Source of the DNA: Elusimicrobia bacterium HGW-Elusimicrobia-2
GTDB taxonomy: Bacteria > CG03
Length of the DNA: 30,601 bases
Direction of reading: 5' to 3'
Assembly: GCA_002841685.1 (NCBI GenBank)
Contig: PHAM01000019.1
Span: 1-30,601, forward strand
Shown here: positions 25,640-27,298 of the stretch, piece after piece
Position numbering within the stretch: position 1 is the stretch's first letter
Layout of the letters: the number at the start of each line of letters is the position of its first letter
The notes under the pieces: model-generated
Database searches by the model: none
Told to the model about the DNA's origin: nothing
What the model saw: the letters and a program-made list of their open reading frames with translations, nothing else
Made by a program: the position numbers and the translations under genes

Positions 25640-26659
25640 TTATTGCAGATTTGTAATCAGTTTTTTCATGTCGGATTTAAAAACCGGCATCCAGAACTCT
25701 CCTAAATACAATTTGTCGTCTGAAAGAACTCCGGGAAAACCCGCTTTTTCAATTTTCGGCCGGATTCCCCTCATCAGTTCCCGAAGTTCCGAAGACTGCA
25801 TTTCTGAATCGAGATTAAGAAAGCTCTTCTGATTTAATTTCAACCATAATTCCTCTAATGCGTTAAAAAACAAAGGCCGGTTCATCCATCCCTCTAATTT
25901 TCCGTCCAACATTAAAAATTCAGACCATTTTTTATTGTCAAGCCAGTAATGCTTTTCCCTGCCCGATGCGGTAAGCCTAACCAGACCCGACCGCTCCATA
26001 GCTACCAGTGTGTCCTGCACAGTTTTTTGGGAATAATAAGTTTCTCCCGCGATTTTGCTGGGATGCGATTCCCCTTTTGCGAGAAGATACAGTATTATCT
26101 CACTGCGCGCGTTAATGCCAAAAAGAAACCGGAGCTTCACGGTTAAACAATTATTGCTTCCTGTTTTTATGGGATCTAATTTCTTTCTTATTTCCACTTT
26201 ACCTCTAAGATAACCCTGCTTAAAAAAAACAGGGTCGTTCTTCCCGAACTGTTTCATCGTTCTGCCGTCTTTTAGAAAAAATAAACTTTCCCGCGAACCG
26301 GCTTCCGGAGATCGTGTTAAACCCTCCCATTTTAAGAATTTGTGTCTCCGCGCCATAAAAGACGCGACCGCCGAAAGAACGCTTGCACCGCTAAAATTAT
26401 AACTATTCATTATTTTCTTCAAGCGCTGGACATTAATCAGGTTGCCATTTGCGCAAAGCCAGTTTATAATCTCATCAAAAAGACGAGGGTCATACCGCGC
26501 GGCCGTGCAGCTAAAAAGAAGCAGCGCTTCCGGATCGACAATGCGGCATTCTTTATCACCCCCGTAACCGGAAACGCCGAGAACAGACCATTGCCTCCAC
26601 AGAAAAGTTAATAAGCTTTCCAGGTAAAATCCCTTAATTTTATTCAGCGATTGATTCAT
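25640..26659 (-). CDS. Winged-helix protein, partner of the nucleotidyltransferase
   Basis: This 339-residue protein has no recognised enzymatic motif. The N-terminus has an aromatic-rich helix (FYLESLLTFLWRQWSVLGVSG, about 11-31) followed by a helical region (about 35-115). A clear winged helix-turn-helix lies at about 178-240: NARSEIILYLLAKGESHPSK, then IAGETYYSQKTVQDTLVAME, a recognition helix, and the wing SGLVRLTASGREKHYWL. The C-terminus is helical. The gene is second in a two-gene unit, overlapping the nucleotidyltransferase gene by 20 bp, with GAGGA about 10 nt before its ATG. The most likely roles are repressor of the unit at the inverted repeat upstream and/or antitoxin-like partner. 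Both are inference. Confidence 0.72.
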   Translation of the reverse strand: MNQSLNKIKGFYLESLLTFLWRQWSVLGVSGYGGDKECRIVDPEALLLFSCTAARYDPRLFDEIINWLCANGNLINVQRLKKIMNSYNFSGASVLSAVASFMARRHKFLKWEGLTRSPEAGSRESLFFLKDGRTMKQFGKNDPVFFKQGYLRGKVEIRKKLDPIKTGSNNCLTVKLRFLFGINARSEIILYLLAKGESHPSKIAGETYYSQKTVQDTLVAMERSGLVRLTASGREKHYWLDNKKWSEFLMLDGKLEGWMNRPLFFNALEELWLKLNQKSFLNLDSEMQSSELRELMRGIRPKIEKAGFPGVLSDDKLYLGEFWMPVFKSDMKKLITNLQ

Positions 26660-27230
26660 AACCCAGCTTCCTCAACATATCTTTCAAAACACAGCGGAAA
26701 CCTTCTGAAGAATCATGCTTAAGCGCCCAGGCCGAGGCCTCTTTGATTTCCTCTTCCGCGGGATTCAACGCAAGTAAATCATCAACATGACGGCCGGGGC
26801 CCTGGTCAGCCGCTGCAAATAATTTTAAATGTACCTGATCATATCTGCCCAAAAAATATACTGTCAGCTTCCTGCCGTAAATGCGTTGATTCGCTCTTTG
26901 AATAAACCCTTCGGGGAGGCCCTCTTTCATGATATCTCCGGGTCCGGAATTCAGCCACTCCTCATTCATACCTAAATCATGCGCAACTTCGCATGCGGCT
27001 TTGAGAACTATTTCCGGCAAAGGGGATGATTTTCTAAAACTAAGAACGCCTTTTTTATCCGCGTTTCCCACCGCCACAACATCCACATCTTTCGTAACGC
27101 GTGATAGCAATTCTGAAATGATTAACGATGAGCCTCCGCAGACAACAAGAATTATGTGAGAAGATTTTTTTAATTCCAGCTTCTTCCCCATCAGCATTAA
27201 CGCTTTTTCTAATTGTTCTTTGCTATACAT
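26640..27230 (-). CDS. Small nucleotidyltransferase, DUF6036-like
   Basis: This is a 196-residue protein with the nucleotidyltransferase core CGGSSL (31-36) and the DVD pair (D48, D50), as in MNT/AbiEii-type enzymes. A family-typical segment near 135-155 (HLKLFAAADQGPGRHVDDLL) supplies K136, D142 and D150/D151. Related families include toxins that add nucleotides to tRNA and antitoxin MNTs that add AMP to HEPN toxins; which applies here cannot be told. Order is nucleotidyltransferase first, winged-helix second, opposite to AbiEi-AbiEii. There is no Shine-Dalgarno sequence. The start codon's first two bases lie inside the inverted repeat, so a leader hairpin sits about 12 nt before the AUG. 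Confidence 0.8.
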   Translation of the reverse strand: MYSKEQLEKALMLMGKKLELKKSSHIILVVCGGSSLIISELLSRVTKDVDVVAVGNADKKGVLSFRKSSPLPEIVLKAACEVAHDLGMNEEWLNSGPGDIMKEGLPEGFIQRANQRIYGRKLTVYFLGRYDQVHLKLFAAADQGPGRHVDDLLALNPAEEEIKEASAWALKHDSSEGFRCVLKDMLRKLGYESIAE

Positions 27231-27275
27231 AATATAAGCGATACCACTTCTGACAAGTGGTATCGCTTATATTAT
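27229..27275. repeat. Perfect 21-bp inverted repeat with 5-bp spacer (candidate operator)
   Basis: The left arm 27229-27249 and right arm 27255-27275 are perfect reverse complements around CTGAC. The arms include ATACCACTT and AAGTGGTAT. The right arm covers five of six bases of the -10 box of the nucleotidyltransferase promoter, and the left arm reaches the first two bases of its ATG. A dimer or tetramer binding here would block the promoter. Confidence 0.9.
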
Positions 27276-27298
27276 ACGCTTATTCTGATAAATGTCAA
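27271..27298 (-). promoter_or_regulatory. Consensus promoter of the nucleotidyltransferase/winged-helix unit
   Basis: TTGACA (27298-27293), a 16-nt spacer and TATAAT (27276-27271), both full consensus hexamers, lie on the minus strand. Transcription should start near 27264 inside the right arm, so the RNA would begin with a 10-bp hairpin and then the AUG. Confidence 0.85.

What the first reader, a model, noticed from the sequence alone, without database searches (positions are those of the whole stretch)
25640..27230. Two-gene nucleotidyltransferase + winged-helix unit, possible undescribed toxin-antitoxin or defence module
Seen: a 196-aa nucleotidyltransferase (CGGSSL...DVD core, DUF6036-like) and a 339-aa winged-helix protein overlap by 20 bp, are driven by a full-consensus promoter, and sit between unrelated envelope and K+ uptake genes. 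Known: MNT and AbiEii-type nucleotidyltransferases pair with HEPN or winged-helix partners in toxin-antitoxin and phage-defence systems. Here the order is reversed relative to AbiEi-AbiEii, and the winged-helix protein is much larger than a plain antitoxin, with a conserved-looking FLWRQW helix at its N-terminus. Inference: a self-regulated toxin-antitoxin or RNA-modifying unit.
Basis: partly seen in the sequence, partly recalled or inferred. Interest (0 to 1): 0.72.

Follow-up and report, generated by a model that had tools for sequence, protein, structure and literature searches.

The report
Mobile toxin-like gene pair, self-repressed
This is a portable two-gene unit, a nucleotide-transferring enzyme that looks like a growth-stopping toxin plus a DNA-binding partner that probably restrains and switches it; it is scattered across many bacterial phyla and in several of them is wired into the cell's restriction-modification immune system, so it is probably an undescribed defence module.

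Summary
The pair is a 196-aa DUF6036 nucleotidyltransferase (NTase) and a 339-aa protein with a central winged helix that matches no curated family. In the window it is a ~1.7-kb insertion: two congeneric genomes have the same flanking genes joined with nothing between. Across 80 relatives the gene order and a 20- or 26-bp overlap are almost invariant, and a palindrome centred 22 bp before the NTase start recurs (30/48 loci against 6.5% expected). In 386 genomes all 18 winged-helix genes have the NTase or its remnant directly upstream. The NTase is broken in 5 of 18, the partner in none. All four active-site residues mutated in MenT1, including its phospho-acceptor threonine, are conserved. 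In 20 of 80 loci the pair lies exactly between hsdM and hsdS of a Type I restriction system; in one clade its operator has moved to the hsdM promoter. Best reading: an autoregulated NTase toxin/antitoxin-repressor module, mobile, repeatedly wired into Type I restriction-modification. Toxicity, substrate and trigger are untested. It fails defining features of AbiE. New variant of a known kind.

The parts
26640..27230 (-). DUF6036 nucleotidyltransferase, 196 aa (proposed toxin); active-site residues T46, D48, D50, K136, D151
25640..26659 (-). 339-aa protein with central winged helix (residues ~183-241), conserved helical N-terminal domain (proposed antitoxin and repressor)
26640..26659 (-). 20-bp overlap of NTase 3' end with winged-helix 5' end; 26 or 20 bp in 62 of 65 relatives (23 or 32 bp in the other three), always the same reading phase
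27271..27298 (-). sigma-70 promoter TTGACA-N16-TATAAT, 12/12; transcription start inferred near 27264
   Evidence: start site inferred
27229..27275 (.). perfect 47-bp palindrome (21-bp arms, 5-bp centre) from the -10 box to the start codon: proposed operator, centre 22 bp before the start codon
25620..27327 (.). approximate limits of the inserted cassette, absent at the same site in congeneric genomes G002 and G003

Best explanation
The pair is a mobile, autoregulated toxin-antitoxin-like defence module. The first gene makes a MenT/AbiEii-like polymerase-beta-fold nucleotidyltransferase that, when free, would modify an essential molecule (most likely tRNA 3' ends) and stop growth. The second gene, translated from an overlapping start, makes a winged-helix protein that does two jobs: its conserved N-terminal part holds or inactivates the NTase (possibly by inducing phosphorylation of the invariant Thr46, as MenA1 does to MenT1), and its winged helix, alone or as NTase complex, binds a ~47-bp palindrome over the promoter and represses the operon. 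In some lineages the same module sits inside Type I restriction-modification operons, where it would act as a second line of defence and, in one clade, control the promoter of the whole operon. Shown by sequence: strict linkage, the operator palindromes and their positions, active-site conservation, restriction-modification embedding, cassette insertion, one-sided decay of the NTase. Inferred: toxicity, antitoxicity, substrate, repression, trigger.
For: Linkage: 18/18 winged-helix genes in 386 genomes have the NTase or its remnant directly upstream; the two genes co-diverge (Mantel r 0.83, best of 999 permutations 0.13). Decay: NTase broken in 5 of 18 (G002, G130, G163, G182, G254) with winged-helix gene intact, never the reverse; no strong NTase hit (E below 1e-40) lacks the partner. 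Active site: profile alignment to MenT1 matches T39, D41, K137, D152 to T46, D48, K136, D151, conserved in 69, 68, 69 and 69 of 69; mutating D41, K137 or D152 kills MenT1, and T39 is its phospho-acceptor (PMC11375011). MenT1 and MenT3 are among the top fold matches. Autoregulation: palindrome centred at -22 in 30/48 loci against 6.5% at control positions (p ~ 5e-24). Defence context: directly between hsdM and hsdS in 20 of 80 loci, also in G182 and G320; several independent placements on the tree. Mobility: clean empty sites and one viral contig.
Against: No toxicity, binding or enzymatic data exist. Fold similarity to MenT1 (Z 7.7) is no better than to the aminoglycoside adenylyltransferase ANT(2'') (Z 8.0), so the substrate is open. 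Sequence similarity to MenT1 is weak (E 0.087). Most Type II toxin-antitoxin operons put the antitoxin first; here the presumed toxin is first. Most loci (about three quarters) are not beside restriction-modification genes. The decay asymmetry is small (5 to 0).
Confidence: 0.6

Rival explanations
1. Dedicated control module for restriction-modification operons: the winged-helix protein is mainly a transcription factor that times hsd expression, and the NTase is its sensor or modifying enzyme, not a toxin.
For: In one clade a 39-bp palindrome (TTATAGTTTA-N19-TAAACTATAA) lies just upstream of the hsdM promoter, mostly centred at -68 to -71 from the inferred transcription start, a position typical of activators; 13/15 embedded loci against 0/5 hsd operons without the pair. 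Repressor RptR does this for other Type I systems (PMC12255303).
Against: Most pairs, including this one, stand alone, and here the operator is found nowhere else in the genome, so there is nothing else to control. The active site is invariant also in stand-alone copies.
Confidence: 0.2
2. The NTase is the antitoxin and the winged-helix protein the toxin, as in HEPN-MNT (type VII) systems where the NTase modifies and silences its partner.
For: NTase gene first, as in MNT-HEPN operons (PMC3710099); NTase catalytic residues invariant.
Against: The NTase is lost or broken while the partner persists in 5 of 18 genomes, never the reverse, opposite to expectation if the partner were toxic. No HEPN match in Pfam scans of 77 partners.
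Confidence: 0.1
3. The perfect palindrome is an RNA hairpin in the leader that controls translation or stability rather than a DNA operator.
For: The predicted leader folds into a 10-bp hairpin (-19.7 kcal/mol, z -3.4).
Against: About 12 bp of the left arm lie upstream of the inferred transcription start; complementarity across 48 loci stays raised out to 23 bp from the centre and drops to background at 24, so the symmetry extends into untranscribed DNA.
Confidence: 0.06
4. A resistance-type small-molecule nucleotidyltransferase with its local regulator (ANT/Lnu-like).
For: ANT(2'')-Ia is the top structural match by a hair.
Against: Repeated placement inside Type I restriction-modification operons, a long conserved partner and one-sided decay are not expected; the TxDxD...K...D set matches MenT1.
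Confidence: 0.05

Closest known systems
MenAT (MenT1/MenT3 nucleotidyltransferase toxin systems)
   Same: Polymerase-beta-fold small NTase; active-site T/S, D, K, D set conserved at aligned positions; paired with a partner gene
   Different: Partner is an unrelated 339-aa winged-helix protein; sequence similarity very low; tRNA modification not shown; NTase gene first with a nearly fixed 20/26-bp overlap
AbiE (AbiEi-AbiEii, type IV toxin-antitoxin)
   Same: NTase plus winged-helix DNA-binding partner; promoter inverted repeats suggest negative autoregulation
   Different: No AbiEi-family match; winged helix central, not N-terminal; gene order reversed; motif IV (+DxxD) is HxxD and the motif III arginine is missing
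RptR-DarTG2-Type I restriction-modification island (PMC12255303)
   Same: Toxin-antitoxin pair embedded in hsd operon with a dedicated regulator acting on the hsd promoter
   Different: RptR is a separate 79-aa helical repressor binding TAGCTA; DarTG2 lies between hsdS and hsdR; here one pair may supply both regulator and effector and lies between hsdM and hsdS
PrrC anticodon nuclease in EcoprrI
   Same: Growth-stopping effector gene embedded in a Type I restriction-modification locus
   Different: PrrC is a nuclease activated by phage Stp; no NTase, no winged-helix partner

Membership tests
DUF6036 (PF19502) | Match above Pfam gathering score | tested here: met
   32.7 bits against 23.6
AbiE type IV toxin-antitoxin | AbiEii family match (PF08843) | tested here: not met
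   E 0.21, 11.9 bits against cut-off 22.5; PADLOC AbiEii E 0.014 over 45 residues
AbiE type IV toxin-antitoxin | NTase motifs I and II with the extra arginine (G-G, R-x3-D-h-D) | tested here: met
   G32, G33, R44, D48, D50 (motifs as in PMC3985639)
AbiE type IV toxin-antitoxin | Motif III KLxAaxxR | tested here: inconclusive
   K136, L137 and A139 conserved; arginine replaced
AbiE type IV toxin-antitoxin | Motif IV +DxxD | tested here: not met
   H148-x-x-D151 in 68 of 69
AbiE type IV toxin-antitoxin | AbiEi-family partner encoded first | tested here: not met
   no AbiEi match in 77 partners; NTase first in all pairs
MenAT | Active-site T39, D41, K137, D152 of MenT1 | tested here: met
   aligned; conserved 68-69 of 69
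MenAT | Partner homologous to a known MenA antitoxin | tested here: inconclusive
   no match found in the searched libraries
MenAT | tRNA acceptor-end extension, growth arrest | not testable with these tools
   needs bench assay
HEPN-MNT (type VII) | HEPN-domain partner | tested here: inconclusive
   no HEPN match in Pfam scans of 77 partners; helical N- and C-terminal parts not searched alone
RptR-type restriction-modification regulators | ~79-aa helical repressor, TAGCTA sites | tested here: not met
   339-aa winged-helix protein; different operator

The most novel reading that the evidence does not exclude
[quoted passage not shown] One protein would thus be antitoxin, autorepressor and restriction-modification controller, in a module that also moves about on its own as a 1.7-kb cassette.
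Probability: 0.25. Interest if true: 0.8.

Novelty: new variant of a known kind. Interest (0 to 1): 0.64.

Why it matters
It adds a widespread candidate NTase toxin system with a partner family that matches no Pfam, NCBIfam or PADLOC family beyond a generic winged helix, a nearly fixed gene overlap and a predictable operator, so that its members can be found and tested at once. The restriction-modification-embedded form suggests a direct regulatory wiring between a Type I restriction system and a backup growth-arrest enzyme, a question (how restriction-modification and abortive systems are co-ordinated) that has few tested examples (PrrC, RptR-DarTG2).

Tried and rejected
Single-sequence scan of genome contigs found nothing; the alignment scan found 116 relatives, 80 kept. 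No winged-helix relatives in viral contigs, plasmids or phages with the window protein, none on plasmids with a restriction-clade pair, no PHROGs family for the NTase. Bulk Pfam/PADLOC scan of the non-restriction neighbours showed no common partner. RNA-hairpin reading of the palindrome rejected as main role. A first fold of 27200-27255 left out half the hairpin and was redone. First search for operators next to the NTase in embedded loci found none at -22; they lie upstream of hsdM instead. Operator pattern search in 386 genomes: 6 sites, two beside pairs (G010, G130), one convincing palindrome without a pair (G101, before a DNA methylase gene), three chance-like. Embedded loci L092 and G320 lack the exact site. 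Literature: DUF6036 in no paper held; no description of the pair found; a 2024 preprint on defences embedded in immune systems, cited in PMC12255303, is not held and could list it.

Full report
WHAT IS THERE. On the minus strand a consensus promoter (TTGACA-16-TATAAT) reads into a 196-aa nucleotidyltransferase (26640-27230) and, overlapping it by 20 bp, a 339-aa protein (25640-26659). The first passes the Pfam cut-off for DUF6036; the second has only weak ArsR/MarR-like helix-turn-helix hits near residues 185-245, and neither is covered by PADLOC. Models from deep alignments are confident (pLDDT 93 for the partner, 96 for the NTase): a polymerase-beta-type NTase fold and a protein with a central winged helix between helical N- and C-terminal parts.

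IT IS AN INSERTED CASSETTE. In two congeneric genomes (G002, G003) the O-antigen ligase gene and trkH are neighbours with about 48 bp between the matches. Alignment shows the same sequence on both sides of the window's pair, interrupted by about 1.7 kb from ~25620 to ~27327, with the ligase's last codons and stop supplied by the insert. G002 carries its own copy elsewhere, beside an lpxK-type gene. No transposase or integrase gene was seen in the insert.

A WIDESPREAD, STRICTLY LINKED PAIR. A profile scan brought 80 loci from Elusimicrobiota, Verrucomicrobiota, Thermodesulfobacteriota, Spirochaetota, Lentisphaerota, Nitrospirota, Omnitrophota, Hydrogenedentes and others. The NTase is directly upstream in nearly all, with an overlap of 26 bp (48 loci), 20 (14), 23 (2) or 32 (1), always in the same phase. 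In an unbiased set of 386 genomes, 18 have the winged-helix protein and all 18 have the NTase or its remnant immediately upstream. The two proteins co-diverge (Mantel r 0.83). The tree shows phyla intermixed in places, which with the empty site indicates horizontal movement, though bins and paralogues limit that inference. Neither plasmids nor named phages gave a match, one viral contig did.

ONE-SIDED DECAY. Of the 18, five have a damaged NTase with the partner intact: an internal deletion (G002, residues 23-160 missing; it lies near a contig end, so mis-assembly is not excluded), a missing N-terminus (G254), a deletion (G163), a frameshift (G182) and a stop near codon 167 (G130). None has a damaged partner with an intact NTase. 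Among the 80 loci there are further internal in-frame deletions (L028, L081, L085). This fits an NTase that is the harmful component and a partner that must not be lost first, but numbers are small (one-sided sign test 0.03) and the 80-locus set was collected through the partner.

ACTIVE SITE. All 69 aligned NTases keep G33, T46, D50, W92, N94, D131, K136 and D151; D48 is kept in 68. The profile's best match among solved structures is MenT1 (E 0.087), and the alignment places T46, D48, K136, D151 on MenT1 T39, D41, K137, D152, the residues shown to matter for nucleotide transfer and, for T39, antitoxin-induced autophosphorylation (PMC11375011). Structural comparison ranks ANT(2'')-Ia, MenT1 and 5uvd level (Z 7.6-8.0), MenT3 a little lower. 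So the fold and catalytic set are MenT-like, the substrate is open.

OPERATOR. Averaged over 54 loci whose NTase start does not abut hsdM, self-complementarity peaks at a centre 22.0 bp before the NTase start codon (z 6.3). With near-duplicates removed, 30 of 48 loci have at least 11 of 21 complementary positions there against 6.5% at control positions, and the excess ends sharply at 23 bp from the centre. Because part of the left arm lies upstream of the inferred transcription start, this is a DNA site rather than only an RNA hairpin, although the leader can fold. Sequences of the site differ between clades while the position is fixed, as expected for a regulator that evolves with its own operator. 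The N-terminal domain of the partner is its most conserved part and the wing and C-terminus much less so, consistent with a conserved protein contact and a drifting DNA contact; this last point is inference.

WIRED INTO TYPE I RESTRICTION-MODIFICATION. In 20 of the 80 loci the pair lies directly between hsdM and hsdS (families confirmed on examples; positions), and three of the 18 unbiased genomes have this layout (G130, G182, G320). On the tree these form one large clade plus separate cases among Verrucomicrobiota and Lentisphaerota, so the association arose more than once. In the large clade the NTase start follows the hsdM stop within a few bases and has no palindrome of its own. Instead a 39-bp palindrome, TTATAGTTTA-N19-TAAACTATAA, stands upstream of the hsdM promoter, usually 12-15 bp before the -35 box. 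It is also upstream of the NTase in two relatives outside that layout (L073, G010). Thirteen of 15 sites examined at pairs have it or a close form, none of five hsdM loci without the pair does (p 0.001); five controls are few, and they belong to somewhat more distant hsdM. One genome without a pair (G101) has such a palindrome before a DNA methylase gene. The position upstream of -35 could mean activation; this is not decided.

HOW IT MOST LIKELY WORKS. Sequence-supported: co-transcription, overlapping genes that suggest coupled translation, autoregulation through a palindrome, a catalytically complete NTase, mobility, repeated union with Type I restriction. Inferred: the NTase stops growth by nucleotide transfer to an essential RNA; the winged-helix protein neutralises it and represses the operon; infection or loss of the partner releases it. 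I put 0.6 on this reading, 0.2 on a mainly regulatory role for restriction operons, and small weights on inverted roles, an RNA-level role and a small-molecule substrate.

RELATION TO KNOWN SYSTEMS. It works like AbiE or MenAT but is not AbiE: partner family, gene order and motif IV fail. It shares the MenT1 catalytic set, but no MenA-type partner was found. Embedding of growth-stopping modules in Type I loci is known for PrrC (PMC3710099; PMC12707154) and DarTG2 with the regulator RptR (PMC12255303). No held paper describes the present pair; an unheld 2024 preprint on embedded defences may.

Noticed in passing
G000:C47 ~26.2-31 kb (L167:6257-10889): The window's own genome has a Type I restriction locus with a helix-turn-helix-fused hsdM followed by RhuM-like, GIY-YIG-like and hsdS-like genes and a large ATPase-like gene; the NTase/winged-helix pair is not in it. 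Names other than hsdM are read from sequence, not scanned.
   Followed up: partly
L011:2291-5917: In G010 the pair stands directly beside what look like AbiEi and AbiEii genes, so two different NTase/winged-helix systems are neighbours.
   Followed up: partly
L143:1501-1537 (G101:C78:2038-2074): A convincing copy of the hsd-type palindrome lies before an 858-aa DNA methylase-like gene with a PIN-like gene behind it, in a genome where no pair was found.
   Followed up: partly
L030:5085-8496: One Verrucomicrobiia contig carries two convergent copies of the pair, one with a truncated NTase.
   Followed up: no
L174:4977-6540: An IMG/VR contig carries the pair near ParB-like and helicase-like genes, the only viral-collection hit.
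   Followed up: partly
G000:C32:1114-1578, C2:70997-71377, C6:9100-9480: Three other DUF6036 genes in the same genome; the two read (C32, C2) have other or no clear partners. DUF6036 is broader than this paired family.
   Followed up: partly
L157:3378-3980 (G195:C76): A more distant DUF6036 NTase (E 1e-19) stands without the winged-helix partner.
   Followed up: no
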